A stretch of DNA of 34,888 bases from contig JAFDHD010000020.1 of the NCBI GenBank assembly GCA_019308995.1, positions 1 to 34,888 of the forward strand, given 5' to 3'. Under the pieces are notes generated by a model. That model saw nothing but the letters and a program-made list of their open reading frames with translations. It was not told the DNA's origin and searched no databases. Positions within the stretch are counted from its first letter, which is position 1, and each line of letters opens with the position of its first letter. A program made the position numbers and the translations under genes. Positions 998 through 28,467 of the stretch are shown here, piece by piece. The DNA comes from Deltaproteobacteria bacterium (GTDB taxonomy: Bacteria > Desulfobacterota > Desulfarculia > Adiutricales > JAFDHD01).

Positions 998-2489
998 GAA
1001 CGGCTCCCTTTAACGGCGTCTTGATCATAAGATCCTCGACGGTACGAATGGTATTCCGGCCATCTTCCTTGGCCTGGTATAAGGCCCGGTCAGCCAGGCG
1101 GACCAGGTCGTCAGCCTGCCTGACATGGGAAACGTCACTGGCGGCCAGACCTTGGCTGATGGTCAGTCTCAGCGGGACTTCCCTGACGAGAATCGCGGTT
1201 TGAGATATCTTTTTTTGAATACGCTCTGCCAGGAGCAGGGCTTGATCTTGCGGAGTATCCGGGAGGATGACCGCGAACTCTTCCCCGCCGAACCTGGCCG
1301 GGATATCAGTCTCCCGGGCGCAATTGGCAATGATATGAGCCACGGTTTTAAGCACTTCGTCGCCAGTTTGATGTCCATAACGATCATTAACAGACTTGAA
1401 GTGGTCCAGGTCAATCATGAGTAGCGACATGGGTCTCTGGTGGCGCCGAACCCTTTTGTATTCCTGATGGAGGTTCTCCTCAAAGGCTCGGCGGTTAAAC
1501 AAGCCGGTTAAGGGGTCTCGTGTGGCCAGATGCAGGGCCGCTTCATGTTGGTGAGCGTTGTGCAAAGCTTGAGCTGCCTGCATGACCACGCTTTCAAGAA
1601 GCAGCCTTCGGTCATGGTCTGGTTTCGGTTTTTTTAAAAAATAAAGGGCCAGCAGGCCGTTTTTTTCTCCAGCCACAACCAGAGGCAGGACAATCTGATG
1701 CGGAGGACGCCGGGATAGGGGGCGGGCTGGCTTGATTGGCTGCGCCAGATGGTGAATTATATCTTCTGAAGAGAGGTCTCTTTCCATCTGAGGCATCAAT
1801 TCATCGGCCAGGCGGCTGGTCAGGGCTGGACTGAGGCGCCGGCTGGTATAAAAAGTCGCCTGATCCTGGGGCACGAAAGCAGATATGATAATGGTCAGAT
1901 CAGGCTTGACCAGCCAGGCTAAGGCTCGGGTCACCAGGTCGAGGATGGCCTGAGTTTTAAGGGTTGCGCTCAGATCGGTGCTCAATTCATAAAGAAACCG
2001 GATTTGTTTTGTCTTTTCATTGAGTGCGCCCCTTTCTTTGACCAGGAGCTCCTGGTTTTTTTTCAGCTCAAGATTGGCCGACTTCAGGTCGTGGGTCAGC
2101 TGAAGGATCTCGCGAAAGGCTTCTTTATTTTCCAGACCCATTTCGATTACCGGTTTCAGTTTCTCAAACTGCACAGGTTTTGACAGGCAGGCCAGGGCCC
2201 CTGCCATAATCCAGTTCATGGAATGATCCAGGTCAGCTTGCCGGGACATAACGATAATGAAACTATCCAAATTTCTGGCTTCAATTGCCTGGATTAGATC
2301 GGTTGGCGTCAAACCATTGACTGTTTCATCCAGAATAATCAAGGCTGGCTCCAGGTTTGAGAAGAGGTTCAAGGCGCTGTCCGCGTCGGCCGCAGAAAAC
2401 ACTTTAAACCCCTGGGCCCTAAGGACCTTGGCCAGATGATCCCTGTGGGAGTTTTCAGGGTCAACGATCAAGATTGAATCCTTTTTCAA
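990..2489 (-). CDS. Response regulator with GGDEF domain (diguanylate cyclase)
   Basis: A 499-residue cytoplasmic signalling protein. An N-terminal receiver domain (about 5-120) has the expected acidic residue (D10), phospho-acceptor D54 (IILD), S82 and K104 (LSKP). A coiled linker (about 130-165) leads to a GAF-like region (about 165-315), then a GGDEF domain (about 324-485) with DPLTGLFNRR at its start and the catalytic motif GGEEF at 401-405. An RxxD inhibitory site (RETD, 392-395) lies five residues before it, so product inhibition is likely. Predicted reaction: two GTP to c-di-GMP. It overlaps the PilZ gene by 8 bp, so producer and reader are co-expressed. No partner kinase is in the window. 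A promoter was not identified, but a 14-bp palindrome lies about 70 bp upstream. Confidence 0.93.
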   Translation of the reverse strand: MKKDSILIVDPENSHRDHLAKVLRAQGFKVFSAADADSALNLFSNLEPALIILDETVNGLTPTDLIQAIEARNLDSFIIVMSRQADLDHSMNWIMAGALACLSKPVQFEKLKPVIEMGLENKEAFREILQLTHDLKSANLELKKNQELLVKERGALNEKTKQIRFLYELSTDLSATLKTQAILDLVTRALAWLVKPDLTIIISAFVPQDQATFYTSRRLSPALTSRLADELMPQMERDLSSEDIIHHLAQPIKPARPLSRRPPHQIVLPLVVAGEKNGLLALYFLKKPKPDHDRRLLLESVVMQAAQALHNAHQHEAALHLATRDPLTGLFNRRAFEENLHQEYKRVRRHQRPMSLLMIDLDHFKSVNDRYGHQTGDEVLKTVAHIIANCARETDIPARFGGEEFAVILPDTPQDQALLLAERIQKKISQTAILVREVPLRLTISQGLAASDVSHVRQADDLVRLADRALYQAKEDGRNTIRTVEDLMIKTPLKGAVHA

Positions 2490-4598: not shown

Positions 4599-6401
4599 AT
4601 GGGTTTAGTTATTAATCACAACCTGATGGCCATGAATGCGGCGCGCAACCTGACCACGATCTATAAATCGCTGGCCAAGTCAACAGCGGCCCTTTCTTCA
4701 GGTCTTCGGGTCATGTCTGCCGCGGATGACGCGGCTGGGCTGGCCGTCCGCGAACTGATGCGGGCCGACATTGCAGTGCTCAATCAGGGCATGAGAAACG
4801 CCAGTGACGCCATTTCCTTGATCCAGACGGCTGAAGGCGCGCTTGGCGTTGTTGATGAGAAGCTCATTCGTATGAGAGAGCTGGCCGAACAGGCCGCCAC
4901 CGGTACTTATACCACGTCCCAGCGAGCAATAATGAACTCCGAGTATCAGGCCATGGCCGCTGAGATTGACCGAATCGCCAGCGCCACGGATTTTAACAAT
5001 GTCAAGTTGTTAGATGGTTCTCTGGCGGCACTGCACGGTGGCAGTGGTCTGAAGATCCATTTCGGTACTGGAAATAGTTCGGCCGAGGACTACTACTATA
5101 TTAAGGTCGAGGACATGCGGGCCACGCCTACGACCGGACTGGGCGTCGGCACGACTGAAACAACGAATGTGGACGTCTGGTACAACGACAACGTTTACCT
5201 GGGTGCGGCCAACTGCGCTGTCTCCACCACGAACGGCTACCTCTTCTTTGCTTATGACTATGACGCCAGCCGCACCACCGGCTCGGCCGTGAGCACGGAA
5301 CTGGGGAACATCGTTGGTATGTACCAGGTTGCCAGCGCTGCAACCGAAAGCGGCGCTTTCGGCCTGAACGCCCTGGTGGACGCCATTAACCAGGGAACAG
5401 CCGCACGGGTGGCGATAAATTTTGATTACAGCGACCCGGTCCAGGCCGGTTCTTCCCTGGCCGAGGCCTTCAATATTACTTGTGCCGCTCCTATGCATTT
5501 TTCCATGGGCGATGTTAAGATCGCGTTATATCAGTCTGCTACTGATTTCGTGGATAGTGATGCAGACATCTCGATCGATGCAGGTACTCCTACGGTGGCT
5601 GATTTCATGGAGACGATCACCTCGGCCATCAATACGGCCGATGGCAATGTCTTTGCGGTCTGGGACAACACCTCGTCTGGAAACGCGGTCATGGTCTTTG
5701 CCAAGGAGGCTGGAGCGGCCGGAAACGGTTATCAGGCCTGGGAAGATGCTTCTGCTACTGGCGTGACCTTCAAGTTTATTGGCGATAATATTACTACGAC
5801 TTCAGCCGCCGGGGGAATCACAGAAGGAACGTTCTCAGGTGGCGGTGCGAGCTGGGTCACGGCCTCGGTCACCACGGATGATGACGGCCGCTATCGGCTC
5901 AGGATAGACGGTAATGCCACCGGCGCCGGTCATGACATGATGTTCTATGAAGCTGCGGATGCCACCGATTACAATGGCGGCGGAATTTGCGGGGCCAGTA
6001 CCTGGATCGGCGCTCTGACCGCGTACGACGACAGCGCCGCGAGCGAGTGGATCCAGCTCACCGACTCCAGCGGCGTGAGCGGATTCCTGAGCGATCCTGG
6101 TAAGACCATTCTTACCCAGTCTGCGGCTCAGCTGGCTTTGGGTCAAATTACCTTGGCTATCAATAGCAAAGACAACGCTCGCGCTAACCTGGGTGCTTTA
6201 CAAAACAGGCTGGAGAACACCATCACCCAGATCGCCATCCAGGCGGAGAACCTGCAGGCGGCCGAGTCACGTATTTCAGATATTGACGTGGCCCTGGAGA
6301 TGACTGAATTCACCAAAAACATGATCCTGGCCCAGGCGGCGACATCCATGCTGGCCCAGGCGAACGGCTTGGCCCAGTTGGCCCTCTCGGTGCTGGGTTA
6401 A
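4599..6401 (+). CDS. fliC: Flagellin 1
   Basis: A 600-residue flagellin. The N-terminal D0/D1 part (about 1-145) starts MGLVINHNLMAMNAARNL and has the SSGLRVMSAADDAAGLAV signature. The C-terminal D1/D0 part (about the last 100 residues) has ITQIAIQAENLQAAESRI and ends LAQLALSVLG. Between them lies a large variable region of about 350 residues, expected at the filament surface, so the protein is larger than a minimal flagellin (about 270 residues). It polymerises into the filament after export by the type III flagellar system. An SD GGAGG lies 9 nt before the ATG, a sigma-28 promoter at 4407-4433, and a terminator follows at 6455-6495. It is a close paralogue of flagellin 2 (21501-23288). The neighbouring glycosyltransferases suggest it is O-glycosylated. 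Confidence 0.97.
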   Translation: MGLVINHNLMAMNAARNLTTIYKSLAKSTAALSSGLRVMSAADDAAGLAVRELMRADIAVLNQGMRNASDAISLIQTAEGALGVVDEKLIRMRELAEQAATGTYTTSQRAIMNSEYQAMAAEIDRIASATDFNNVKLLDGSLAALHGGSGLKIHFGTGNSSAEDYYYIKVEDMRATPTTGLGVGTTETTNVDVWYNDNVYLGAANCAVSTTNGYLFFAYDYDASRTTGSAVSTELGNIVGMYQVASAATESGAFGLNALVDAINQGTAARVAINFDYSDPVQAGSSLAEAFNITCAAPMHFSMGDVKIALYQSATDFVDSDADISIDAGTPTVADFMETITSAINTADGNVFAVWDNTSSGNAVMVFAKEAGAAGNGYQAWEDASATGVTFKFIGDNITTTSAAGGITEGTFSGGGASWVTASVTTDDDGRYRLRIDGNATGAGHDMMFYEAADATDYNGGGICGASTWIGALTAYDDSAASEWIQLTDSSGVSGFLSDPGKTILTQSAAQLALGQITLAINSKDNARANLGALQNRLENTITQIAIQAENLQAAESRISDIDVALEMTEFTKNMILAQAATSMLAQANGLAQLALSVLG

Positions 6402-11524: not shown

Positions 11525-13138
11525 TCAACCCATGGCCTTCTGAAAAAGACACGATTGACGACCCGTATCAACCCGGGAAGAGGAATAGCTCAAGGCCTTT
11601 GAAATTACGGCCCTCATGTTTTGCACCATACCTTGGGCTGTTTTTGGGCTCACTTCAGGAATAAGAAGCGTCCTTATTAGCGGTTTCAGCTCCGGTTCTT
11701 CAGTCCCGATTTTTATGATGTCAGTTACCGGGCCTCTATCTTTCCTTAATGGCAGAAACTCTTCCAGCTCAACCAACCTGCGAACCAGATTCCCCAATCC
11801 AGGCAGTTCCGAGGGTTCAAAGTTCATGAATTCAGACCCTAGTTTCTCCTCCTGAACGCGATAACCGGCGCGCATAAAGGAACGGCCCGCTTCCCGAAAG
11901 GCCAGGGCCAGGATTTCTTCCCGGTCCAATGGCCACGGAATTAGCGGACGGTAGATGGTGCCAAAGTCATCCATCTCTGAAACGAGGATCCGGACGTTTG
12001 ATCCCAGCATTTCTCGGCCGGGCAGGTCAGAGGCCTTCTGGCTGAGGAGATAACGTGCCAGGGAAAAAACCAGGGAAGGCTTGATCATGAACCGGCAGAC
12101 CATCTCGCTACAGCGGGATTCATCCTCTGTGCAAGGCGAACAGTCGGTTACAACCTGGGCGATCAGGTGACCCGGGCCACAGGGGCCGGTTTCGTGACAC
12201 AAGGCCGGGCCCATAAACAAAGCCAGGATCGGTGTTTTGAGTGCAGCGGCCAGATGCATGCTTCCGGTGTCTGATGTGATGAGCAGATCGAGCCTGTCTA
12301 AAACTCCGGCCAGGCCCGGGACACTCGTTCGACCCATGAGGTCAATTACCCTTATTCTTGCCTGCGGCGCCGTGCGGCCCAGCCGGGCCATGAAATCCTG
12401 ACCCAGGGAACGTTCCTCGTTTGTTCCCAGGAGAACCAGATGAGCCCCTTGTTCCATGATTAGTTTTTGGCCCAGGCAGGCATAATTTTCCACAGGCCAC
12501 TGCCGGGACTTGTGCCGGGAACCGAGCTGGATCCCGAGCAGGGGACCATTTAAGCCCGGTCCCAGCAGGTCAGAAGCCAGGCGAGCCGTCTCAGAGGTCA
12601 GAGGATAGGTCAATCCGGCTGACGGTGGAACCCCATGACCGGCATAAGTGGTCAGCAGGTCAACCAGATTGAAGCGGATCAGGCGGCGGTGAGCCATAAG
12701 ATGCATGATGAATCTGGTCCACGGCGCTGTGAGTAAACGCCTTCGGTCTTGGCCAAAGTGTGAACCTTGCCTTTTTTTGGCTGGAATAAGGTGTCCCAGT
12801 AAGGCGGCCACCCGTGAAGTGTTGAGGTTGATCAACAGGTCGTATTCTAGCGCTTTTAATCCTTTGACCGCTGTGGAGAGCTCTTTAAATTTTTCAGAAA
12901 GAAGGGTGCGGCGCTGGGCTATTTCGGCCAGGTTTCCCAGGTCCACGGTCAGGACCGCGTCAAGATTCGGGTTGGTCCGGGCAAGCTCAGCTTGATTTGC
13001 GGTTACCAGAACTGTCAGCTCGCTGTGCGGGTACCTGGCCTTGAGCGCGGCCAGGAGAGGGGTGGTCTGGAGGAAGTCTCCGAACCGGGCCAGTTGGATT
13101 ACAAGGATGTTCTCAGGGTGCAGGTCCGCGTCAGTCAT
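11525..13138 (-). CDS. Glycosyltransferase family 9 (heptosyltransferase-like)
   Basis: A 537-residue GT9 protein. The N-terminal half begins ILVIQLARFGDFLQTTPLL (11-29), the standard GT9 start in which R-x-G-D is key. The C-terminal half has LGIQLGSRHKSRQWP (201-215), and LLITSDTGSMHLAAAL (285-300), the nucleotide-sugar binding signature. A cysteine-rich stretch (CSPCTEDESRCSEMVC, 333-348) follows, as in several GT9 members. About 165 residues beyond residue 370 are an extra, unrecognised C-terminal part. The reaction would be transfer of a heptose-like sugar from an ADP-sugar. In LPS synthesis this is a core enzyme, but here the operon context suggests flagellin glycan assembly. Its start overlaps the upstream glycosyltransferase by 4 bp (ATGA). 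Confidence 0.88.
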   Translation of the reverse strand: MTDADLHPENILVIQLARFGDFLQTTPLLAALKARYPHSELTVLVTANQAELARTNPNLDAVLTVDLGNLAEIAQRRTLLSEKFKELSTAVKGLKALEYDLLINLNTSRVAALLGHLIPAKKRQGSHFGQDRRRLLTAPWTRFIMHLMAHRRLIRFNLVDLLTTYAGHGVPPSAGLTYPLTSETARLASDLLGPGLNGPLLGIQLGSRHKSRQWPVENYACLGQKLIMEQGAHLVLLGTNEERSLGQDFMARLGRTAPQARIRVIDLMGRTSVPGLAGVLDRLDLLITSDTGSMHLAAALKTPILALFMGPALCHETGPCGPGHLIAQVVTDCSPCTEDESRCSEMVCRFMIKPSLVFSLARYLLSQKASDLPGREMLGSNVRILVSEMDDFGTIYRPLIPWPLDREEILALAFREAGRSFMRAGYRVQEEKLGSEFMNFEPSELPGLGNLVRRLVELEEFLPLRKDRGPVTDIIKIGTEEPELKPLIRTLLIPEVSPKTAQGMVQNMRAVISKALSYSSSRVDTGRQSCLFQKAMG

Positions 13139-15468
13139 GACAGGTAATCTCGTCTCATGTGTTCAATCAGTTTTGAGAGGCGATGACGGTAGGTATGTTC
13201 AGCCAGTACCCGTTTGTAGGCCAGTCGGGCCACTTCCTCTCGGGCAGCGTCGTGACGGAGATAAAATCGCGCCAGGTCGAGGGCTTCTGCAGGTTCATGG
13301 TAGCAGATAACTTCACGGCCGATTTGGAACAGGTCTGCCATCTGCCTCTTGGCATCCGACAGGACAAAGGCTCCGCAGGCCGGCAGGTCGAAGACTCGCT
13401 GGTTGAGCCCGGTTTTCATCTGCAGGCTGGTGACATTGAAATTGACCTTGCAGACCGGATAGAACCAGGGCAGCTCTTCGTAGTAGTTGAGAGGGTCCCG
13501 CAGGACGAAACGTTCAGGGTCCAGCAAATCGGCCCAGGCCCGGTCGCCGATGATGGTCGGATGAAGCGGGGCCAGGGACTGAATCATCTCCAGGCGATAA
13601 ACCTGGGTGGCTCGCCAGATCAAAAGGGCCTCGAGATCCACCAGGCCAGCCGCATCGAGTCCGGCTGCGGCTTCATGTTCTAAGACACCCATCCGTTTCA
13701 AGAGCGCCAGGGGTGTCCGGTCGCTGATTTCGATGAACTCACGGGCTGCCTGATCAAGCCGGGACAGGAAGCCTGGTTTGAATCCGAATTTTTCGATCTT
13801 TTTTAAGATGGCCTTGGTCATGGAGTTGCCAACGAAACTGATGCCGCAGCTCAGGTGGGCCAGCGGACTGGGTCGCCCATTGAGGGGTTTGAACACCGTC
13901 TCGTCCGTTCCCAGGGGAAGGTAGTATACACGCTCGATGCCCAGGGATTTAATATCCGCGATATAGTCTGAGTCCCAGAGAAAGATGGAGCAGAAATCCG
14001 ATATATTCTTCTCATAGTGGCGTAGGATGAGCATGGGGCTGTCCACATACCAGGAGGCGTAAGGCATTTTTATTTGTGTCAGAAAGCCGGTCACAGATCC
14101 TTCCATGTCAAAGCCGAGATGGTTGACAGTCAGGACGAAGTCCGGCTTGAACATCTGGATTTCCTCAATCAGACGCTGAATTATTTTCTGGCAGTCAGCC
14201 TCCCTGTCCCGGATCATCACAAGACGGGCCTGGTGTCCAAGGGCCTTGAGGTTGTTCAGGAGTTCTCTGATTAGCAGATGCTTCCCGTGGAGGATCAGGA
14301 TTTTCAGGCTCTCTTTTTTTAAGCGAGGGTAAAAGAGGCGATGATGATTATTATAAAACTCGTCAGCAGATGTCCGGGCGCGGGCGGCCAGACTCAAATC
14401 AAATATTCTTTCCCATTCCGCAACAATGGTCGGCCAGGTGTATTTCTCCTCTATGGCAGTTCGAGCCCTGGCGGCATGAGCAGCGGCCAGACCCGGCTCG
14501 TCAAGCAGCTTCAGTGTCTGCTTGATAAATAAGTCATCATACTCCCTGGTTCCAGGTGTGCCAGCGATCTTGAATTCCGGAACCTGAACCGTCTCCGCCA
14601 AGGCAAACTCATCCGTGGTCAGGATTGGTGTGCCACAGGCCTGAGCCTCAATGGCCACAATACAGCTTATTTCCGGAAAGAGGCAGGGGTAGAGCATCAG
14701 CGAGGCCTGGGCCAGGTGGCGATAGTATTCTTCTTTTGTCAGAGGGCCCAGGGGGACGACATTCAGCGACCGTTTCACCAGATCGTTCAGGTAACTATAT
14801 AATTCGGATAAATCAGGCGCCAGATCAGCAGGCTGGACCTCATACCCGCACAAATACAATCTCAGCTTCGGCCTGGCCTTGACCAGGCTGGGCCAGATGT
14901 CTTCAAGGAGTATTTTGAGCCCGCGCTCAGGCCGTGAGGCGTAAATGACTTTCTGGCGATCTTTATTGACATTGCGGGTTGCCTGATCAATGAGCGCTAG
15001 GTCCACGCCGTTTCGAGTCACCACGGTCTGGCCCTCGAGATCAGGGATGCGGGAGAGGAAATTGTCTCGGTGGAAGCGGCTCAAGGTAAAAAGCAGGTCA
15101 ATGCGGTCCAGCACGGGTCGCAGCCTGTCCGGACGGTCCAGGGTGTCGTGGTTCCAGAGGACTTTAAGCCTGGCCGGGATGGGAATCGTAAAAAAATCGA
15201 AGAACCGGCTGACGATAAAAACATCGAATTGTAAACCGCTGACCCGGCGGACGTAATCTGAAATGGGACGGTAGGTCACACCGTCATACTGGCCGGGCAT
15301 CTCGCAGTTATTGAAGACAATGACTTCATGGCCGCGGGCGGCCAGAGCGCCTGCGGCCTGGATCAGCGCTGTTTCACTGCCGCCCAGGGCCTTTTTCTGC
15401 AGGGTTGCACCGTCAAAGGCCGGCCCGTCAGTGAAAAAGCCGATGGTTTTTCGGTCAGGCCTGTCCAT
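13135..15468 (-). CDS. Two-domain glycosyltransferase (GT4 fused to CgeB-like)
   Basis: A 777-residue protein with two glycosyltransferase units. The N-terminal GT-B unit (about 8-365) has KKALGGSETALIQAAGALAA (25-44), RNGVD (152-156), YASRPERGL (176-184) and an E-x7-E motif at E266 and E274 (PEISCIVAIEAQACGTPIL), typical of GT4. The C-terminal unit (about 386-777) begins LKILILHGKHLLIRELLNNL and contains the MPYASWYVDSPM segment, LPLGTDETVFKPL and a final RQMADLF / ARLAYKRVLAEHTYRHRL region, matching CgeB/DUF3880-type glycosyltransferases (Glyco_trans_1_2). Two active units in one chain could add successive sugars. It overlaps the GT2 gene upstream by 14 bp and the GT9 gene downstream by 4 bp. 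Confidence 0.88.
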   Translation of the reverse strand: MDRPDRKTIGFFTDGPAFDGATLQKKALGGSETALIQAAGALAARGHEVIVFNNCEMPGQYDGVTYRPISDYVRRVSGLQFDVFIVSRFFDFFTIPIPARLKVLWNHDTLDRPDRLRPVLDRIDLLFTLSRFHRDNFLSRIPDLEGQTVVTRNGVDLALIDQATRNVNKDRQKVIYASRPERGLKILLEDIWPSLVKARPKLRLYLCGYEVQPADLAPDLSELYSYLNDLVKRSLNVVPLGPLTKEEYYRHLAQASLMLYPCLFPEISCIVAIEAQACGTPILTTDEFALAETVQVPEFKIAGTPGTREYDDLFIKQTLKLLDEPGLAAAHAARARTAIEEKYTWPTIVAEWERIFDLSLAARARTSADEFYNNHHRLFYPRLKKESLKILILHGKHLLIRELLNNLKALGHQARLVMIRDREADCQKIIQRLIEEIQMFKPDFVLTVNHLGFDMEGSVTGFLTQIKMPYASWYVDSPMLILRHYEKNISDFCSIFLWDSDYIADIKSLGIERVYYLPLGTDETVFKPLNGRPSPLAHLSCGISFVGNSMTKAILKKIEKFGFKPGFLSRLDQAAREFIEISDRTPLALLKRMGVLEHEAAAGLDAAGLVDLEALLIWRATQVYRLEMIQSLAPLHPTIIGDRAWADLLDPERFVLRDPLNYYEELPWFYPVCKVNFNVTSLQMKTGLNQRVFDLPACGAFVLSDAKRQMADLFQIGREVICYHEPAEALDLARFYLRHDAAREEVARLAYKRVLAEHTYRHRLSKLIEHMRRDYLS

Positions 15469-16645
15469 GGCCGGCTATATCCTCAAGAAGTTCGGTACCC
15501 CGGCGGTTGCCAGGGGAGAGTTCAAGGCAGCGCCTCACATGGCGCAGGGCCTGATCGGGGCGGTTCCGGGCCAGGGAGATTCTGGCCAGGGCCAGACTCG
15601 GTTCAGGGTTCGCTGGATCTACCTTGGCCGCCATGCGGTAAGCAGCCATGGCACTCTCTGGATTTTTCATCTTTTCATGGCACCGACCCAGCAGGAGGGC
15701 GGCCATGAATGTGAGGTGGCTGGAATTCAATCCGGACACCGGATCGTTGGCCCCCTGCCTTAAAAAGGCCTGAAGTCTTTTCGCAGCTTCCTTGTAGTCA
15801 GAACGGGCGTAAAGATGGCGTCCTAAATAAAAATGGCTTGGGCCGTATTCTGGATTGGTCTTGATTAATTTTTTAAGACAATCCTCGGCTTCCTGAATTC
15901 GGCCCAGACGTTCCAATGTCTGGGCTTGAAGGATGTGAGCATGAAAATAGAGGCCCTGGTTTTGGTCCGCCTGATTTCGGGCCGCAGCGGCTCGCCTGAG
16001 CCAGGGTAAAGCCTCATCAAAGCGGCGCAGGTTGAATAAAGTCTTGCCGGTCTGGTAGCAAAGATAAAGATCAGGGGCCTGCCTTTTGACCATGTCCTTC
16101 AGAAGACGGAGGTTCCTCTCCCCCTTCTGTTTGGCTTTAACCTTGTCTGCATAACCCCAGTGGATGATTTTGACCGGGGTCATCACCAGGCGGTAGTGAG
16201 CCGGGTGGACTAACTGCTCATGAACCCGCCCCTCAAAATAGACTTCCGGCCGGTTGGGGAAGACTCTTTTCTGGATTAACTGCTCCCCGGAAGGCACAAC
16301 CACCTCAATGCACCACAGGATTGATTCACGCCTGGCGTCAATATGACCTCGAATCGTCTCCACGTCCTCTGGCATGATACGATTGTCTCCGTCCAGCCAG
16401 AACAGCCAGTCTTTAGATGCTGCCGCGATAGAGGCGTTCCGAGCCGTGGCAAAGTCATCAGACCAGGGGATTTCAATGACCTTCGCGCCGTAAGAACGGG
16501 CCAAATCCTGGGTTCCGTCTTTTGAACCGGTGTCAATGACCACAACCTCGTCGAATAAGCGGTGCACCGGACCGAGGCTGTGCCGCAGATTGGCCGTCTC
16601 GTCACGCAGGATCATACACAGGGATAAACTAGGCTCAGATGTCAT
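15455..16645 (-). CDS. Glycosyltransferase family 2 with TPR repeats
   Basis: A 396-residue protein. The N-terminal GT-A domain (about 5-230) shows LSLCMILRDETANLRHSL (7-24), VVVIDTGSKDGTQDLA (34-49) and the metal-binding DxD-type motif WLDGDN (83-88), close to SunS-like GT2 enzymes. The C-terminal half (about 180-390) is made of TPR-like helical pairs (for example YFHAHILQAQTLERLGRIQE and SALALARISLARN-type repeats), which in O-GlcNAc-like enzymes bind the protein substrate. A role in direct glycosylation of flagellin is a reasonable inference. The start overlaps the stop of the small gene upstream (ATGA). Confidence 0.9.
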   Translation of the reverse strand: MTSEPSLSLCMILRDETANLRHSLGPVHRLFDEVVVIDTGSKDGTQDLARSYGAKVIEIPWSDDFATARNASIAAASKDWLFWLDGDNRIMPEDVETIRGHIDARRESILWCIEVVVPSGEQLIQKRVFPNRPEVYFEGRVHEQLVHPAHYRLVMTPVKIIHWGYADKVKAKQKGERNLRLLKDMVKRQAPDLYLCYQTGKTLFNLRRFDEALPWLRRAAAARNQADQNQGLYFHAHILQAQTLERLGRIQEAEDCLKKLIKTNPEYGPSHFYLGRHLYARSDYKEAAKRLQAFLRQGANDPVSGLNSSHLTFMAALLLGRCHEKMKNPESAMAAYRMAAKVDPANPEPSLALARISLARNRPDQALRHVRRCLELSPGNRRGTELLEDIAGHGQA

Positions 16646-16935
16646 AATCGCAGGGCCTCTCCAGGCGGATTCTTTTTATAACCCCGGCTGCCCAGCATTA
16701 AGGTCAAACACTTGCCAGCCGTGGTGTATCGTTTGACCGCCCCATCGCCCGGGCTGGAGATAGAAAACCGGTTTTTCCCCATGACTGATTCACAGAAAAG
16801 GGAAGGGCGGATCGCCTCAAAAACGCCTGGCAGGTCATGGCTCTTCAAAGGGCGTTCGTCAGTGATTTGACGGCATTTCCGGGTATGTTTGTCCAATCCT
16901 TCATTAATGGAAGGAGGAGTCTCGAGATGCGCCAT
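16642..16935 (-). CDS. Small unknown protein of the glycosylation operon
   Basis: A 97-residue open frame of unknown family with a basic C-terminal half containing SVMGKNRFSISSPGDGAVKR and KCLTLMLGSRGYKKNPPG. Two things support it: it lies in the same direction in the 450-bp gap between two glycosyltransferase genes, and its stop codon overlaps the start of the GT2 gene (ATGA). Against it, the AAAGGA before the ATG is only about one base away, too close for a good SD. An upstream stop codon near 16944 rules out a longer form. Confidence 0.45.
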   Translation of the reverse strand: MAHLETPPSINEGLDKHTRKCRQITDERPLKSHDLPGVFEAIRPSLFCESVMGKNRFSISSPGDGAVKRYTTAGKCLTLMLGSRGYKKNPPGEALRL

Positions 16936-17095
16936 TTCCTTTCGTTAGATCGAATTTTTGATTTCGTTTACAGATTTTTGCAGCCCCATTTAAAGATCAG
17001 AGACTCGCCCTAACGGTTCAGTCCCTTGATAAGGTAAGGAGCAATATTCAGGCCAAATCGGCTTTAAGAGTGAGTACCATGAATCACCTGGCAAA

Positions 17096-18706
17096 CTAAC
17101 TGACACTGATGTATCCTTGCCGGGCGGCCAGGTTGGCCTTTTGCGCCAGGTCAATTGACACAGAATCTATCTCGGTTGCCCGGGCCAGGAAGTGATAGGC
17201 CTCGATATTGGCGTTGTACTTCATCAAAAGATCGCCCAGGCGCGTCAGGGCCGGTAAATGGTAAGGGTCTAGCGTCACGGCCCGGTAATAATGTTCAAAA
17301 GCGTTCCACATTGACATGTGCAGATTGAGTCGTGAAAAACCTGGGGTCAGGTCGTGGCCTCGGGCTTCAAGGAGTTGGCCGAGCGCGTGATGCTGGTCCG
17401 CGGATAAATCCCCGTTGTCCGACATATTTCGGAAAGGATCTGATTCAAACGAAGCCTGACCTTCAGCCTGGCGAACCGCCTGCCGAAAGGATTGACCCGC
17501 CCGGCGCCTGTCTCTTTTGTTCAGGGCCAGATACCCTAATGTGAGTCTCGCCCTGAAGCTGCCTTGCGAGGCGGCGTCTTCCAGGTTGATTCTTGCTTCT
17601 GTATGGTTGTTTCTGAGTATCTGAATCAGGCCTAAGAAAAACAAGGCGTCTTTATCAGCTTGATTTAGGCGCTTGGCTCTTTTGAGCATTGTTTCAGCCC
17701 GTATGATCCAATTCCGGCTGCCTTGATCAGGCCAACGCATGGCCGCCAAGAAAAGAACCTTTCCCTGCTGGCCGAAAAAAAGACCTCCTTCCTGCAGCCC
17801 GGTTCCGGGGCGAGCATGGGCGGTGAGGTTTAGCAGTGTTTCAGTCCGATGCCTTATATGATGGGCTGTCATCACTTTTTCCCGGCCCCGCGCCGCGATT
17901 CGTTCTCTTTCTTTCTCGTTATTCAGATAGTATTCCGCCTGTTCGAGCAGGTCGCAAGGACTGAAGGCGGCCAGGTCTTGCCCTGGCTGAAACAGGTCTT
18001 CAAGGCCGTTTGCAGCCGCTTCGGTAAAGAGCATGGTTCCGGAGGCCATGCCTTCAAGCATGCGGGTGGTTACTCCATCAAACAGGTTCTCGTTCAGCAC
18101 CATCCTGGCCTGCCGGTAGAGCCGGGCCGCTGCTTGCGGCGGAACCCATTCTTTTTGCCTGCCACCGGCTGTGCGCACCGAATGCCGTTCTGACAGAAGC
18201 TTGATAATCCGGCGCCGCTTGGGCCTGACGTTTTTGTTCACAGCGCCAACAAAGGCCAGGTCGTAGATTTTTTCCTCAGCCGGACCCTGAAAAAGCTCAG
18301 TTTCAATCCCCACCGGCAGCCAGCAGGTTTTTGCGGCCGAAAGCCTGGACAGTTTTTGAGCACAATCCTTTTGATCAACCAAAACCAGATCGAACAAAGA
18401 GGCGTATTCTTTGTGCCAGAAAAAATTCAGGGGTCCGTCAACCGCGTACCAGACCTTGAGTAAGGAGGTCTTTTCCAGGCCGGAAGGGAAGACTCTTCGG
18501 CCCAGATCGTCTGTCAGGATGACGGCCTCGGGTGAACAAGAAAGGCGGGAGATTATGTACGGGATATCCAGCTTCTGAGCTGGCAGACATAGATCGCACG
18601 CCGGGTCATCACCGGCCCATACGGCCCGGTGTCCCATTTCTTGTAAGGCATGCTTGAAATAATTGCTGCCAAGCAGTAGAAAATCCATGAAAGCTCGAAC
18701 TGACAT
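17096..18706 (-). CDS. CgeB-like glycosyltransferase with C-terminal TPR repeats
   Basis: A 536-residue protein. The first part (about 1-310) resembles the CgeB/DUF3880 glycosyltransferases: FLLLGSNYFKHALQEMG at the start, VWYAVDGPLNFFWHKEYASL, WLPVGIETELFQG, then VLNENLFDGVTTRMLEGMAS with a GTMLFTEAA segment, the conserved C-terminal donor-binding region. The rest (about 330-530) is built of TPR-like repeats (ALFFLGLIQILRNNHTEARI; HLPALTRLGDLLMKYNANIE). It is the first gene of the minus-strand operon, 88 bp from a sigma-54 promoter candidate's start region. ATG codons at residues 1 and 7 both have weak SD sites, so the start could be 18 bases further in. Confidence 0.85.
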   Translation of the reverse strand: MSVRAFMDFLLLGSNYFKHALQEMGHRAVWAGDDPACDLCLPAQKLDIPYIISRLSCSPEAVILTDDLGRRVFPSGLEKTSLLKVWYAVDGPLNFFWHKEYASLFDLVLVDQKDCAQKLSRLSAAKTCWLPVGIETELFQGPAEEKIYDLAFVGAVNKNVRPKRRRIIKLLSERHSVRTAGGRQKEWVPPQAAARLYRQARMVLNENLFDGVTTRMLEGMASGTMLFTEAAANGLEDLFQPGQDLAAFSPCDLLEQAEYYLNNEKERERIAARGREKVMTAHHIRHRTETLLNLTAHARPGTGLQEGGLFFGQQGKVLFLAAMRWPDQGSRNWIIRAETMLKRAKRLNQADKDALFFLGLIQILRNNHTEARINLEDAASQGSFRARLTLGYLALNKRDRRRAGQSFRQAVRQAEGQASFESDPFRNMSDNGDLSADQHHALGQLLEARGHDLTPGFSRLNLHMSMWNAFEHYYRAVTLDPYHLPALTRLGDLLMKYNANIEAYHFLARATEIDSVSIDLAQKANLAARQGYISVS

Positions 18707-21500: not shown

Positions 21501-23288
21501 ATGGGTTTAGTCATTAATCACAACATGATGGCCATGACGGCAGCTCGGCACCTGCAGTCTATCTATGGATCGCTCGGCAAGTCCATCGAGCGCCTGTCAT
21601 CGGGTTTGCGAGTCAATTCCGCGGCCGACGATGCGGCAGGACTGGCGATCCGTGAACTCATGCGGGCAGACATCCGGGTCACCCGGCAGGGGATCAGGAA
21701 CGCCAGCGATGGCATCTCCCTGCTTCAGACCGCTGAGGGCGCACTCTCGGTCATTGATGAGAAACTCGTTCGCATGAAAGAACTGGCCGAACAGGCCGCC
21801 ACCGGTACTTACACCACGGTTCAGCGGGAGATCATGAATTCCGAGTACCAGGCCATGGCCGCTGAGATTGACCGGATCGCCAACGCCACGGACTTTAACG
21901 GTGTCACTATGCTCAATGGCGACATGAGGGACGGCCTGAAGATTCATTTCGGCACTGGCAACAGTTCGGCTGAGGACTACTACTTTATCAGGATTGACGA
22001 CGTACGGGCCACGCCGTCCACCGGTCTTGGCGTCGGCACGACTGAGACCACGAATGTGGACGCCTGGTACAACGACAACGTTTACCTGGGCGCGGCCAAC
22101 TGCGCTATCTCCACCACGAACGGCTACCTCTTCTTTGCTTATGACTATGACGCCAGCCGCACCGCCGGTTCGGCCGTGAGCACGGAACTGGGGAACATCG
22201 TTGGTATGTACCAGGTTGCCAGCGCTGCAACCGAAAGCGGCGCTTTCGGCCTGAACGCGCTAGTAGATGCGATCAACGAAGGTACAGCAGCCCGAGTCGG
22301 GATTAACATCGCATCACCGGGTCCAGATGGGCTTGGGGCAGCTCTGGGGTTGGCTAATTCCGGTGATAACGTGCATCTTACTGTTGGCGATGTTAAGATT
22401 GCATTTTACGGAAGCGCTGCGGCTGCCGGCGGTGGTGCCCAGTATGTTGACAGCGACACTGACATTGCCATTTTGGCGAGTGGTACTGCTGCAGCCAATT
22501 TTGCAAGTATTCTCACCTCAGCTATCAATGCAGCCAATGGCAATGTTTTTGCGGTATGGAATAATGATACCTCTGGGATTGCCGTTATGGTTTTCGCTAA
22601 GCAGGCCGGTGAGGCGGGCAATGGTTACCAAGCAGAGGAAGCTATAGCCGGCACTTCGTTGAAGATGCAATTTTCAGGTGCAAGTATTGACTCTACCACA
22701 AGTGCGACGACTGGAACGTTCTCTGGCGGTGGTGAAAGCTGGGTCACGGCCTCGGTTACCACGGATGAGGATGGTCGTTATCGCCTGAGGTTAGATGGTA
22801 CAATGACCGGTGCTGGCCATGACATTATGTTCTATGAAGCGGCGGATGCTACCGATTACAATGGCGGCGGGATTTGCGGGGCTAGCACCTGGATCGGCGC
22901 TCTGAGCGGGTACGACGACAGTGCCACGAGCGAGTGGATCCAGCTCACCGACTCCAGCGGTGTCAGCGCCTTCCTGACCGAACCCGGCCGGACCATCCTG
23001 ACCCAGTCCGCGGCCCAGTTGGCCCTAGGCGCGCTCAAGACGGCCATTGATTCGAAAGATACGATCCGGGCTACTCTGGGCGCCTTTCAGAATCGCCTGG
23101 AGAACACCATCACCCAGCTCTCGATCCAGGCCGAGAACCTGCAGGCGGCTGAATCCCGAATCTCGGACGTGGATATGGCCTGGGAGATGATGGAGTTTAC
23201 CAAGAACCAGATCATGGTGCAGGCGGCCACGGCCATGCTGGCGCAGGCCAACACCATATCTCAGGTCGCTCTAACGCTTCTCTCCTAA
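21501..23288 (+). CDS. fliC: Flagellin 2
   Basis: A 595-residue flagellin, paralogous to flagellin 1. The N-terminal part has MGLVINHNMMAMTAARHLQ and RLSSGLRVNSAADDAAGLAI; the C-terminal part has ITQLSIQAENLQAAESRIS and ends ALTLLS. The middle of about 350 residues is surface-exposed in such proteins; it contains a stretch (about 175-253) that is nearly identical to flagellin 1 at the DNA level, followed by a stretch that is much more different. The SD is AAGGAGAAGGA before the ATG, with two GGA motifs that CsrA could bind. The promoter is probably the sigma-28-type site at 21199-21225, reading through the 64-aa gene. A 14-bp stem hairpin follows at 23303-23335. Confidence 0.97.
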   Translation: MGLVINHNMMAMTAARHLQSIYGSLGKSIERLSSGLRVNSAADDAAGLAIRELMRADIRVTRQGIRNASDGISLLQTAEGALSVIDEKLVRMKELAEQAATGTYTTVQREIMNSEYQAMAAEIDRIANATDFNGVTMLNGDMRDGLKIHFGTGNSSAEDYYFIRIDDVRATPSTGLGVGTTETTNVDAWYNDNVYLGAANCAISTTNGYLFFAYDYDASRTAGSAVSTELGNIVGMYQVASAATESGAFGLNALVDAINEGTAARVGINIASPGPDGLGAALGLANSGDNVHLTVGDVKIAFYGSAAAAGGGAQYVDSDTDIAILASGTAAANFASILTSAINAANGNVFAVWNNDTSGIAVMVFAKQAGEAGNGYQAEEAIAGTSLKMQFSGASIDSTTSATTGTFSGGGESWVTASVTTDEDGRYRLRLDGTMTGAGHDIMFYEAADATDYNGGGICGASTWIGALSGYDDSATSEWIQLTDSSGVSAFLTEPGRTILTQSAAQLALGALKTAIDSKDTIRATLGAFQNRLENTITQLSIQAENLQAAESRISDVDMAWEMMEFTKNQIMVQAATAMLAQANTISQVALTLLS

Positions 23289-24118: not shown

Positions 24119-26383
24119 TCAACGGATGTAGTCGAGCAAGGAGAGGGAGGTAATCATGGACGTTGAGGCTAAGGTGGCCTGATAAGCCATTTCCTGGAGC
24201 TTAAGAGCGGTGATGGCCTCAATAAGATCTGTGTCTTCGATGTCCGACAACCGCTGTGTCGCCCCGATTTTGGTGCTTTCCAGGATGTTGCCTGCCACCT
24301 CAGTGCGGTTGATACGCACGCCTGTTTGAGCCATCTGGGAAGACAGGTTTTCTAATATCTGGTCAAAAACGGGCAGTTCGTCGGCCACGGCCCGCGGATC
24401 ATGATCAAGCAGGGCCTGTTTCAGGCGAAAGAGGCAGTCCAGAAGGTTATCAGGATCGCCGGCTCCACCCATGGCCTCCTCCCCGTTGACGTTGGCTTTA
24501 ACACGGTGGTTGCGCTGTATGTTCACCTCAAGGTCTTCGGTGTTCCCTAAATAGTGACTGACCTCTATGGTGAATTGGTCACTTACGGATAAGGTTCCTT
24601 CATTGGTGAAGGCGATTTGCACTCCCTGATCCAGGTCGGCCTTGGTGCTGTCCCAGATATTGGTTCCTGTGACGCTGGCCGCAAAGGCGTCGTCCGGCCC
24701 CCATGTCAGGCCTCCGTCTTCAGAGACCTTGAATCTGGCTGCAACGTCCTCACTGCCAGCCAGTGACCATGTTCCGATCTGATTAATGAGACCCAAGCCC
24801 GAGCTTCCCTCGGCCAGTGAGACTTGAACCAGCTCCCCGGCCGCAACATCCAGGGGATTGACCGGGTCATGGGCCTGGATGGCTGCCAGAACGTCTGCCG
24901 CGGTGGCGGAAATATTCCCGTCTGCATCGGTAGCCAGGGTCACCTGAATTTCATAGTTTCCTCCGCCAAGGTTGTTTACGGTCACCTCGGTGGTCTGGTT
25001 GGCCAGGTGAGGGTCGTTATAGATAAGGGAAATTTTATTCCCCTCGGTCCCGGAAATCAGTGCCGTGAACTTCAGGTCGTTGTGCCTCCCGGTGGTTAAG
25101 CTGGTGAAGCCCATGGCCGTGACCACACCGGAACCGTCATCGGTTCCAGCCAGGTCGGCCGAAACCAAGGCACTGGCCTCAGGGTCTCCATTGATGGCAT
25201 TCATAACCTGGGTCGCGGTCGTGGTGATGGCCCCGGTTCCATCGGTGGCCAGATTGACGGTGATATCATTACCGTCCACTGCGATGGTGAGGCTCTGGCC
25301 GGAAGCGCCCGGATCAACATAGCGAATCCTGATATCGTTACCAGACTCCCCGGCGTTTTGAGCCGTGAGACGGAGGTCATCGTTTGCGTCAGCCAGGCTC
25401 GTGGTCAGGGAGGCGAAATTGGTGGTCAGGGAGGCATAGGAAAATCCGCGGGAAAGATTTCGCGGGACACCGCTCATGTCAGAGACCACACCGCTGCCAT
25501 CGCTGCCCGGGGCCAGGGAAGCCGTAACAAGCGCACTGGCGCTTGGATCGGTATTGATGGCATTCATGACCTCAGCCGCGGTGCTGACGATGGCCCCGGC
25601 GCCATCGGTGGCCAGGTTGACCTGGATGTTATAGACGCCGCCGCCAAGATCATTGACAACCACCCCCAGGGGCTGGTTGATACCAAGGGGGTCCACGTAC
25701 TCGATACTGATGTTATCTCCGTCAGGCCCGGCGGTCTTGGCGGTGATAGTAAGGTCGTCATGGGTGTTATCGAAGTTGGTGGTCAGGGAGGCGTAAAGGG
25801 CCTCGGCTCCTCCGGCGCTGGTGATCTGGACCATGTATTCTTTACTCTGGCTTCCGGTGTATGTTCCGGCGCTGGCGGCCCTGCCGGTGTAGGCAGAGGC
25901 AGCGGCTAACGCGGCTGTGGCGTCATGGATATTCAGCTCTTTGATAAAGGGAGCGGTATCGGTCTTGCTGCCTGCAAAGATATAGCGCCCTTCCATGCTG
26001 GTGTTGCCCAGGTTAATTATTTCATCAATGATGCCGTCTATGGCTACCGCGGCTACGTCCAGATTCGAGTCCTGGTAAGTTTCGGTTGACATCTGCTCGG
26101 CTAGGACCTTGGCCTCGGTTACGGAATTTTTCATGTTCAGGAGAGCGGATTCGGAAAGCATGAGCAGATTGTTGGCCACGGACAGATCCCGCTGGTACTG
26201 CTCAATATCCGCCAGGACGGTCCGCATGGTCAGGATGTTCGCTCCTCCCAGGATGTCATCCGAAGGCCGATTGACCTTTTTCCCTGAAGAGATGGATTCA
26301 TTGAGCTTGCTCAGATCATAGGTTATCCGCTGCAGATTGAAGTTGATCATTGAGTATAAGCTCTGTTGAGAGACGCGATTCAT
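24119..26383 (-). CDS. flgL: Flagellar hook-filament junction protein FlgL, enlarged
   Basis: A 754-residue FlgL; typical members have 300-550 residues. The N-terminal D0/D1 part (1-145) contains LSKLNESISSGKKVNRPSDD and YIFAGSKTDTAPF (about 134-146). The C-terminal part (about 640-754) contains RLSDIEDTDLIEAITALKLQ and ends MITSLSLLDYIR. The middle holds three copies of a module of about 100 residues (about 199-302, 327-424, 428-535) with the pattern DLxxTAKxAGxxGDxIxI, YVDPxxxNQPL, VxLATDGxGxI, VMNAINxDPxASALV and DGSGVV. A further beta-rich domain follows (about 545-640). FlgL joins FlgK to the filament. It is the last gene of the flg operon, 14 bp after flgK. Confidence 0.95.
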   Translation of the reverse strand: MNRVSQQSLYSMINFNLQRITYDLSKLNESISSGKKVNRPSDDILGGANILTMRTVLADIEQYQRDLSVANNLLMLSESALLNMKNSVTEAKVLAEQMSTETYQDSNLDVAAVAIDGIIDEIINLGNTSMEGRYIFAGSKTDTAPFIKELNIHDATAALAAASAYTGRAASAGTYTGSQSKEYMVQITSAGGAEALYASLTTNFDNTHDDLTITAKTAGPDGDNISIEYVDPLGINQPLGVVVNDLGGGVYNIQVNLATDGAGAIVSTAAEVMNAINTDPSASALVTASLAPGSDGSGVVSDMSGVPRNLSRGFSYASLTTNFASLTTSLADANDDLRLTAQNAGESGNDIRIRYVDPGASGQSLTIAVDGNDITVNLATDGTGAITTTATQVMNAINGDPEASALVSADLAGTDDGSGVVTAMGFTSLTTGRHNDLKFTALISGTEGNKISLIYNDPHLANQTTEVTVNNLGGGNYEIQVTLATDADGNISATAADVLAAIQAHDPVNPLDVAAGELVQVSLAEGSSGLGLINQIGTWSLAGSEDVAARFKVSEDGGLTWGPDDAFAASVTGTNIWDSTKADLDQGVQIAFTNEGTLSVSDQFTIEVSHYLGNTEDLEVNIQRNHRVKANVNGEEAMGGAGDPDNLLDCLFRLKQALLDHDPRAVADELPVFDQILENLSSQMAQTGVRINRTEVAGNILESTKIGATQRLSDIEDTDLIEAITALKLQEMAYQATLASTSMITSLSLLDYIR

Positions 26384-26397
26384 TTATTCCTCTTTCT

Positions 26398-28467
26398 CTA
26401 AACCATCGAAATCAGCGACTGGAGCATTTCATCGCTGGTGGTGATGATCTTGGCCGCGGCCATGTAAGCGTATTGAAACTTGATCATATTCGTCAGCTCT
26501 TCATCAATGGATACGGCCGAGATCGAGTCGCGCTGCTGTTCAAGCTGCATGACCAGATTTTCGGTGAAGTCGGTGTTGCGGTTGATCGTGTGCGCCGTGG
26601 AGCCGATGTCCGCGGCCAGGGTGTTGTAAGCCTCAGAGATGGTGGAGGGGCCATTTTGAAAAAGGTAGGCCCTGTCTTTGAGGTCCGCGATGGTGAGGGC
26701 ATTGACATTACTGCCTCGCGAGGTCTCGCCTTCTGCGCTGACCATACCGGCGTTGATAAAGGATAGATTGTTTTCAATGGTTTGGTTTAACTGAACGGTG
26801 GCGGTGTCGTGACCGGAGAAGAAGGTGTTGAGGCCGAGCGCCATCAGGATGGAGGCGGTGTCATTGGCCAGGGTGTAATCATAACCGTTACTCGTGTCCG
26901 CCTCGATTTTGAGATGTTCTTTTCCAGAATCATCGGCAACGATACTGGCCCGAATACCCGCGATACCGGTGGCAAAGGATTCCCCGATCTGGGCGAGAAT
27001 ATCCTCTCGGGTGTCATTCGGGTTGACGTTAATGGTGTTGACAGCGGGTGAGTTGCTGGCGTCATAGGTGATCAGGTCAAAGGAGCCAGCCGCCATATCC
27101 TCCCCGAAGGTCAGGATATTGGAAAGATGACGGTTGAGATTTGTCTCCTCCATGGCGCTCACAAGTCCGCGCCCGTCGTTATCCTGGGCCAGAGCGACCG
27201 AGACGAGGGCGCGAGCGGCCGCGGCGCCGGCGCCGCTGTCGGTGTTAATAAAATCTATAATATCCCGGGCGGTTGCAGTGAAATTTCCCCCGGAATCCCT
27301 TGCTAAAGAAATGGTAATGTCATTATTGACAACAGTCACGCCCAGGGGTTGATTGAGGCCGCCGGGATCAAGAAAGGTAATGGTGACCTGATCCCCGTCT
27401 GCGCCTGTGTTTTTGGCGGTGAAGACGATGTCGTTGTCCTCTCCGGCCAGATTCGTCTCCAGCCTGGCGAAGGGTGAAACTTCATACGTTCCAGTCGCGT
27501 CTGTCATGTGAACCAGCCCGGCTCCCTGTGCATGCTGGCGGTTGACTTCCTTGATCAGCATGGCGGTGAAGGCGTCGAACTGGGTGTAAAAGTCTTCAAT
27601 AATGTTCTGTCGAATCTTTACCAGTCCGCCCAGCTGGCCCTGATCAAAGGTGTCCGTGATGTCCACCCGGGCGTCTGGAGAACGGTTCCAGTAGATTCGA
27701 TCATTTCCAGCTACATCCTTGGCCGAGCTGAGGGTCCAGTAGACGTTGCCTTCGACCAGGGGGAAGCCCTTGGGTGTTAAAACAAAGGTGCTGCCATCTC
27801 TCGGGTCTTCAAATTCAGTTATTTCTATAAGCCCGGCCAATCTTCTCAGGAGCACGTCGCGCTGATCCCGCATATCGTTGGCGTTGAACCTTCCCATCTC
27901 AGCGCGAGATATAGATTCGTTGAGTTCGGCGATCTCTTCGACCAAGATGTTGACTTCTGTTACGGCATCCTTAATGCGGAGGTTGAGATCCATCAGCTGT
28001 TCGTCGAGGCTGGCGCGCATCTGTGAGATGGTGTTGATGAGGGCGTGGCTGTTTTCCATCAAACTCATGCGCTCCGGGTTGCCTTCCGGGTTGTTGGCCA
28101 CCTCCTGCCATGAGTTCCAGAATTCAGCCAGTACTCTGTTGAGCCCGTTGTCAAGGCTTTCGTTGAAGATGGTCTCAATCTGCCAGATGATTGACTTCTC
28201 GGTTTCATATTTGGCCAGAAGGCTTGATTGCCTGATCAGATTCCGGGTCAGGGTTGCGTCGTACATTCGGCTGATTTTCTCCCCGGAAACGCCGCTGCCC
28301 ATTTCACCAAAGGCAGACTTGTAAGTCGGACTCGGAATAAGTTCTAACTCCTGGCGGGAGTAACCCTTGGTGTTGACATTGGCCATGTTATGGGCCGTGA
28401 CTTCCATTGAGGCCTGAGCCAGGAGTAGCGCCCTGTTGGCGATATGCATGGCGGTGTTGATGGGCAT
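26398..28467 (-). CDS. flgK: Flagellar hook-filament junction protein FlgK (HAP1)
   Basis: A 689-residue FlgK. The N-terminal region has TAMHIANRALLLAQASMEVT and HNMANVNTKGYSRQELEL (26-43), the usual rod/hook-type start, and EFWNSWQEVANNPEGNPER (115-133), a strong FlgK signature. The C-terminal region ends SIDEELTNMIKFQYAYMAAA then KIITTSDEMLQSLI. One copy of the module repeated in FlgL is inserted at about 335-440 (DNDIVFTAKNTGADGDQVTI; GLNQPLGVTV). FlgK forms the first ring between hook and filament. It lies 2 bp behind flgN, whose product is its export chaperone. Confidence 0.96.
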   Translation of the reverse strand: MPINTAMHIANRALLLAQASMEVTAHNMANVNTKGYSRQELELIPSPTYKSAFGEMGSGVSGEKISRMYDATLTRNLIRQSSLLAKYETEKSIIWQIETIFNESLDNGLNRVLAEFWNSWQEVANNPEGNPERMSLMENSHALINTISQMRASLDEQLMDLNLRIKDAVTEVNILVEEIAELNESISRAEMGRFNANDMRDQRDVLLRRLAGLIEITEFEDPRDGSTFVLTPKGFPLVEGNVYWTLSSAKDVAGNDRIYWNRSPDARVDITDTFDQGQLGGLVKIRQNIIEDFYTQFDAFTAMLIKEVNRQHAQGAGLVHMTDATGTYEVSPFARLETNLAGEDNDIVFTAKNTGADGDQVTITFLDPGGLNQPLGVTVVNNDITISLARDSGGNFTATARDIIDFINTDSGAGAAAARALVSVALAQDNDGRGLVSAMEETNLNRHLSNILTFGEDMAAGSFDLITYDASNSPAVNTINVNPNDTREDILAQIGESFATGIAGIRASIVADDSGKEHLKIEADTSNGYDYTLANDTASILMALGLNTFFSGHDTATVQLNQTIENNLSFINAGMVSAEGETSRGSNVNALTIADLKDRAYLFQNGPSTISEAYNTLAADIGSTAHTINRNTDFTENLVMQLEQQRDSISAVSIDEELTNMIKFQYAYMAAAKIITTSDEMLQSLISMV

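What the first reader, a model, noticed from the sequence alone, without database searches (positions are those of the whole stretch)
24119..28467. A repeated beta-rich module expands FlgL threefold and also sits in FlgK
A module of about 100 residues with the pattern DLxxTAKxAGxxGDxIxI, YVDPxxxNQPL, VxLATDGxGxI, VMNAINxDPxASALV, DGSGVV occurs three times in FlgL (residues about 199-302, 327-424, 428-535) and once in FlgK (335-440). FlgL becomes 754 residues. The flagellins carry a possibly related stretch (GNAVMVFAKEAGAAGNGYQ). Similar repeats are found in phage tail and large surface proteins as far as I recall. The junction proteins may thus be decorated with surface modules, perhaps for adhesion or glycan attachment.
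Basis: partly seen in the sequence, partly recalled or inferred. Interest (0 to 1): 0.6.

Follow-up and report, generated by a model that had tools for sequence, protein, structure and literature searches.

The report
Phage-virion domain decorating flagellar hook, junction
Three proteins of this bacterium's flagellum (the hook protein and the two proteins joining hook to filament) carry extra copies of a roughly 100-residue outer domain that otherwise turns up mainly in the shells and tails of bacterial and archaeal viruses, so two unrelated tube-building machines appear to share one set of decorative parts.

Summary
FlgL (754 aa) contains three copies and FlgK (689 aa) one copy of a ~100-residue module; copies are 35-57% identical and score far above 500 shuffles. 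A fifth copy, outside the window, lies inside the D2 domain of the hook protein FlgE. The flagellin resemblance is not significant. AlphaFold gives one confident fold (pLDDT 93): a beta-rich domain with a helix. It passes no Pfam cut-off; its nearest Pfam family is the phage tail-sheath beta-sandwich domain II (20 of 63 copies match weakly). The module is common in phage virion proteins: an optional insert in P2-type tail sheaths, head-decoration-like proteins, a major tail protein, tail fibres, and a Methanosarcinales virus protein 55% identical to FlgL copy 2. In the window's order FlgK and FlgL carry 1-5 copies; elsewhere in the phylum the usual flagellar carrier is FlgE. FlgK/FlgL copies form one clade; the window species' FlgE copy groups with phage copies, suggesting separate acquisition, though a single flagellar origin is not rejected (AU p 0.10-0.18). 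Most likely a portable, outward-facing structural domain exchanged between virions and flagella. Adhesion or glycan attachment is untested.

The parts
24119..26383 (-). flgL, 754 aa, flagellar hook-associated protein 3 carrying three modules in its outer region
   Evidence: TIGR02550 2.4e-61; Flagellin_N and Flagellin_C at the two ends
25475..25792 (-). module copy L1 (FlgL residues 198-303)
   Evidence: profile score 128 bits
25112..25414 (-). module copy L2 (FlgL residues 324-424); 55% identical to a Methanosarcinales virus protein
   Evidence: 143.5 bits; AlphaFold pLDDT 93; tblastn 8e-16
24779..25096 (-). module copy L3 (FlgL residues 430-535)
   Evidence: 99 bits
26398..28467 (-). flgK, 689 aa, hook-associated protein 1 with one module
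   Evidence: TIGR02492 3.1e-99; FlgK_D1 1e-51 at residues 96-318
27151..27468 (-). module copy K1 (FlgK residues 334-439), directly after the D1 domain
   Evidence: 129 bits; FlgK_D1 ends at 318

Best explanation
The repeated unit is a portable, independently folding beta-sandwich-like domain of about 100 residues, distantly related to domain II of phage tail sheaths. It is used as an optional outer decoration on helical or icosahedral protein assemblies: phage tail sheaths, tail tubes, capsids and tail fibres, and the flagellar hook (FlgE), hook-filament junction (FlgK, FlgL), cap (FliD, in one other lineage) and filament (flagellin, in one other lineage). In the window's lineage it entered FlgK/FlgL before the order diversified and multiplied there by duplication to 1-5 copies; a further copy was inserted into FlgE D2 in the window's genus. 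Shown: homology, fold (predicted), insertion points, distribution. Inferred: exchange between phage and flagellar genes, and that the domains project from the tube and thicken, stabilise or laterally cross-brace the hook-junction region, without being needed for the conserved D0/D1 assembly core.
For: Homology: one profile retrieves FlgL, FlgK, FlgE, phage sheath, phage decoration and tail proteins, mostly at E 1e-17 to 1e-37. Fold: pLDDT 93, pTM 0.86; five phage proteins in BFVD match at TM 0.57-0.79, E 6e-6 to 3e-4; best solved structure is the phiCD508 tail at TM 0.59, E 0.5. Sheath kinship: 20 of 63 copies match Phage_sheath_domII, best 1.7e-4; Vibrio phage Valp1 sheath 6e-4 over the module; solved sheath 8fop 1.3e-3. 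Portability: the FlgE module splits Pfam FlgE_D2 between profile positions 43 and 47; in P2-type sheaths only 12 of 238 records cover at least 80% of a query that includes the module. Distribution: 31 of 41 genomes of the order carry it, in FlgK (1-3 copies) and FlgL (2-5); 17 of 297 genomes in the phylum sample, where the carrier outside the order is mostly FlgE. Tree: FlgK+FlgL copies are one side of a branch (90/73); own FlgE copy groups with phage copies (98/92); starred branches force at least 3 label changes. The near-invariant residues look structural, not catalytic.
Against: Single origin of all flagellar copies is not rejected (AU p 0.10-0.18), so repeated transfer is favoured, not proven; direction of transfer is unknown. 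The full FlgL model has pTM 0.43, so the projection of the modules is not seen, only inferred from the known position of D0/D1. The match to a solved sheath domain is weak. No functional data exist.
Confidence: 0.62

Rival explanations
1. The modules are adhesive or glycan-carrying surface domains: hook and junction displaying ligands for surfaces, cells or polysaccharides, as proposed for Ig-like domains on phages.
For: Outer position; tandem multiplication; Evseev et al. 2022 (PMC9230969) discuss adhesion as one role of extra sheath domains. A glycosyltransferase cluster lies between the two flagellin genes of the window.
Against: No conserved surface-binding residues; near-invariant positions are Gly/Ala/Thr/aliphatic. 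FlgL and FlgK form short rings (general knowledge), so they are a poor platform for adhesion compared with the filament, whose flagellins lack the module here.
Confidence: 0.2
2. The module is merely the known Flagellin_IN or an ordinary variable domain of axial proteins, drifting without special origin; phage copies were taken from flagellar genes.
For: Three of 63 copies match Flagellin_IN at E up to 0.1, best 0.005; the helix-strand pattern is similar by eye; an axial-protein origin is possible since the direction of transfer is unresolved.
Against: Phage_sheath_domII is matched by 20 copies, Flagellin_IN by 3. Phage carriers are more varied (sheath, decoration, tail, fibre) than flagellar ones.
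Confidence: 0.15
3. All flagellar copies descend from one ancestral acquisition, with losses and divergence, rather than several transfers.
For: AU test does not reject a single flagellar clade (p 0.10-0.18).
Against: Best tree needs 5 changes, starred branches at least 3. The FlgE module is confined to the window's genus within the sampled order, while FlgK/FlgL modules are order-wide.
Confidence: 0.3

Closest known systems
Phage tail sheath beta-sandwich domain II (Pfam PF17481)
   Same: Weak but repeated matches over most of the module (20 of 63 copies); the TAK-x-x-G-x-x-G-N-x-I hairpin also occurs in the solved sheaths 3lml (Lin1278) and 8fop; fold match to the phiCD508 tail
   Different: Scores below Pfam's cut-off (15 against 31.4 bits for copy L2); found here in flagellar and other proteins, and as an optional insert rather than a fixed part
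Promiscuous Ig-like domains of phage virion proteins (Fraser et al. 2006, cited in PMC9230969; extra sheath domains of Evseev et al. 2022, PMC9230969)
   Same: Optional beta-sandwich domain found in several unrelated virion proteins, placed away from the assembly core
   Different: Matches no curated Ig family; has a helix in the middle; also inserted in flagellar axial proteins, for which the held library gave no earlier report
Flagellin hook IN motif (PF07196)
   Same: Known from the outer parts of flagellar axial proteins, often repeated (general knowledge); three copies match weakly
   Different: Half the length (55 positions); 60 of 63 copies show no match
Variable outer domains of FlgK/FlgL/FliD/flagellin (4UT1, FliD heads; PMC5072837)
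   Same: Position outside the conserved core, variable between species
   Different: A search with the module and its C-terminal neighbour in FlgK finds no FlgK, FliD or FlgL structure

Membership tests
FlgL (TIGR02550) | curated score over the whole protein | tested here: met
   208 bits against cut-off 127
FlgK (TIGR02492) | curated score over the whole protein | tested here: met
   333 bits against cut-off 171
FlgE hook protein (carrier outside the window) | Flg_bb_rod, D1, D2 and C-terminal domains in order | tested here: met
   all four found, D2 interrupted by the module
Phage_sheath_domII PF17481 | Pfam gathering score | tested here: not met
   15.0 bits against 31.4 for copy L2; best of 63 copies E 1.7e-4. 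Distant relative, not a member
Phage_sheath_domII PF17481 | same fold as solved sheath domain II | tested here: inconclusive
   TM 0.59, probability 0.80, E 0.5 to a phiCD508 tail chain
Flagellin_IN PF07196 | Pfam match of the module | tested here: not met
   3 of 63 copies at E up to 0.1, best 0.005
Bacterial Ig-like (Big) domains | Pfam match and all-beta Ig fold | tested here: not met
   one copy, Big_8 at 0.054; model has helices 69-78 and 80-85
Promiscuous virion decoration domain (a way of working, not a sequence family) | present in several unrelated virion proteins and optional within one of them | tested here: met
   sheath, head-decoration-like, major tail, fibre; 12 of 238 P2-type sheath records
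Adhesin / glycan-binding module | binding to a surface or glycan | not testable with these tools
   needs binding assays

The most novel reading that the evidence does not exclude
Phage virions and bacterial flagella draw on a common pool of exchangeable outer domains: a phage tail-sheath-type domain has been inserted at least three separate times into flagellar axial proteins (FlgK/FlgL, and FlgE of two lineages), giving the flagellum a virion-like coat at hook and junction.
Probability: 0.4. Interest if true: 0.72.

Novelty: new variant of a known kind. Interest (0 to 1): 0.55.

Why it matters
Outer domains of flagellar proteins are hypervariable and their source is mostly unknown. Here one such domain can be traced: the same unnamed, uncurated family decorates phage sheaths, capsids and tails and, in flagella, the hook, junction and (elsewhere) cap and filament. 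That gives a concrete case of likely domain traffic between two unrelated tube machines, a new domain family to curate, and a testable set of with-and-without comparisons.

Tried and rejected
Flagellin relationship in this window: rejected by shuffles, with and without circular permutation. Flagellin_IN or Big domain as identity of the module: not met. Phage scan with the 63-row alignment failed for lack of conserved stretches; single-copy scans gave few new loci. The full-length FlgL fold is too uncertain to give domain placement. A sheath-module query was mis-framed and replaced. Literature searches in the held library for the module shared by flagella and phages gave nothing relevant; subscription journals are mostly not held, so absence is weak evidence.

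Full report
Check of the observation. The two ORFs are FlgL (24119-26383, minus, 754 aa) and FlgK (26398-28467, minus, 689 aa), by curated models TIGR02550 and TIGR02492. The module occurs at FlgL 198-303, 324-424, 430-535 and FlgK 334-439. Identities between copies are 35-57%, local alignment scores are 14-32 standard deviations above shuffles, and third codon positions are 32-53% identical, so these are real and old duplications. The ortholog of copy L1 in the sister genome is 82% identical, more than any two paralogs, so duplication came before the two species split. The modules are somewhat richer in G+C (0.57-0.60) than the rest of the two genes (0.53-0.54), with ordinary third-position composition. 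The remark on flagellins does not hold for this window: only about 20 residues align and shuffled flagellins do as well.

What else is in the genome. A search of the whole 3.78 Mb assembly finds exactly one more copy, in the hook protein FlgE on contig 23, next to a FlgD-like ORF. Pfam FlgE_D2 is split there: profile positions 8-43 before the module and 47-142 after it, a clean insertion into the D2 domain. The same-genus genome has it too (71% identical FlgE). In FlgK the module follows directly on D1. In FlgL the three copies fill most of the space between the two halves of the conserved core.

Fold. With a 63-copy alignment AlphaFold2 gives pLDDT 93 and pTM 0.86: strands, a short helix, strands, a helix pair, strands. 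The whole FlgL model shows the same order of elements in all three copies but is uncertain overall (pTM 0.43). Foldseek finds phage proteins in BFVD (TM up to 0.79, E 6e-6). The best solved structure is a chain of the phiCD508 tail at TM 0.59 but E 0.5; the paper names gp55 as the three-domain tail sheath protein of that phage (PMC11948020), and I infer from the 460-residue length that the chain is this sheath protein. No solved structure is a close relative by sequence.

Relatives. No Pfam or NCBIfam model reaches its cut-off on the module. The only Pfam family matched by many copies is Phage_sheath_domII (20 of 63, best 1.7e-4), and for Vibrio phage Valp1 the match covers the module of an annotated tail sheath protein. 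In viruses the module is found as an insert in P2-type sheaths (phrog_23), in head-decoration-like proteins (phrog_909, labelled major head protein; that they are decoration proteins is my reading), in a major tail protein (phrog_158), in an Ig-domain protein and in tail fibres. FlgL copy L2 is 55% identical to a protein beside the major tail protein of a Methanosarcinales virus, closer than to FlgL copy L3 (35%). Outside viruses and flagella it sits in M14 carboxypeptidases of Solirubrobacter and Nonomuraea.

Distribution in flagella. In the window's order 31 of 41 genomes have it. In the genes read in full, FlgK has 1-3 copies and FlgL 2-5, with FlgL often 1100 aa. In a sample of 297 genomes of the phylum 17 have it, and outside the order the usual carrier is FlgE; other carriers are a tail sheath, a decoration-like protein and one flagellin with a 1125-residue frame. 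A FlgL of another family in the same class carries it too (L181). A FliD from a Blastopirellula MAG has three copies. Large FlgL proteins without a detectable copy exist in the same class, though some of those genes were read only in part.

History. On a tree of 74 copies the 28 FlgK/FlgL copies are one side of a branch (90/73), six FlgE copies of other lineages form a second group (96/91), and the window species' FlgE copy joins phage copies (98/92); starred branches force at least three label changes. The AU test does not reject one flagellar group (p 0.10-0.18). So separate acquisitions are the better reading, not a proven one, and the direction is open.

Mechanism. D0/D1 of FlgE, FlgK and FlgL build the tube and what lies between them faces out (established knowledge of these proteins). 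The domain is optional, multiplies freely, tolerates insertion in many hosts, and its near-invariant residues are structural. The simplest account is an outer structural decoration that thickens or braces the assembly, as proposed for extra sheath domains (stabilisation or adhesion; PMC9230969). Adhesion or glycan attachment remains possible and untested.

Side finding. A 1083-residue phage tail-fibre-like protein (L085/L161) carries five N-terminal half-modules followed by five C-terminal half-modules (AAAAABBBBB), and a prophage-like protein of a Dethiobacter MAG two and two (AABB). This looks like modules inserted one inside another at the same internal joint, and marks that joint as a place that accepts insertions.

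Noticed in passing
L085:2798-6097 (same as L161:2804-6103) and L049:3383-4579: Half-modules arranged AAAAABBBBB and AABB, as if copies were inserted one inside another at the joint between the halves.
   Followed up: partly
window 11525-18706: Cluster of glycosyltransferase and TPR-glycosyltransferase genes between the two flagellin genes, possibly for flagellin or surface glycosylation.
   Followed up: no
window 4599-6401 and 21501-23288: Two similar flagellin genes about 15 kb apart on the same strand, with long identical stretches in the outer domain.
   Followed up: no
L044, L045, L050: Solirubrobacter and Nonomuraea M14 carboxypeptidases carry the module just before the catalytic domain, in neighbouring paralogous genes in Solirubrobacter.
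   Followed up: no
G002, G012, G014, G016, G017, G018, G020: FlgE of relatives in the order is up to 1330 aa, with large inserts between conserved ends in which no module was found.
   Followed up: partly
L125: A flagellin (1125-residue frame) of another lineage in the phylum carries the module (2e-7) and a weak Flagellin_IN match.
   Followed up: partly
L124: A 5445-residue frame, probably a giant surface protein, has one weak module match.
   Followed up: no
window 990-2489: Response regulator with GAF and GGDEF domains near the flagellar genes.
   Followed up: no
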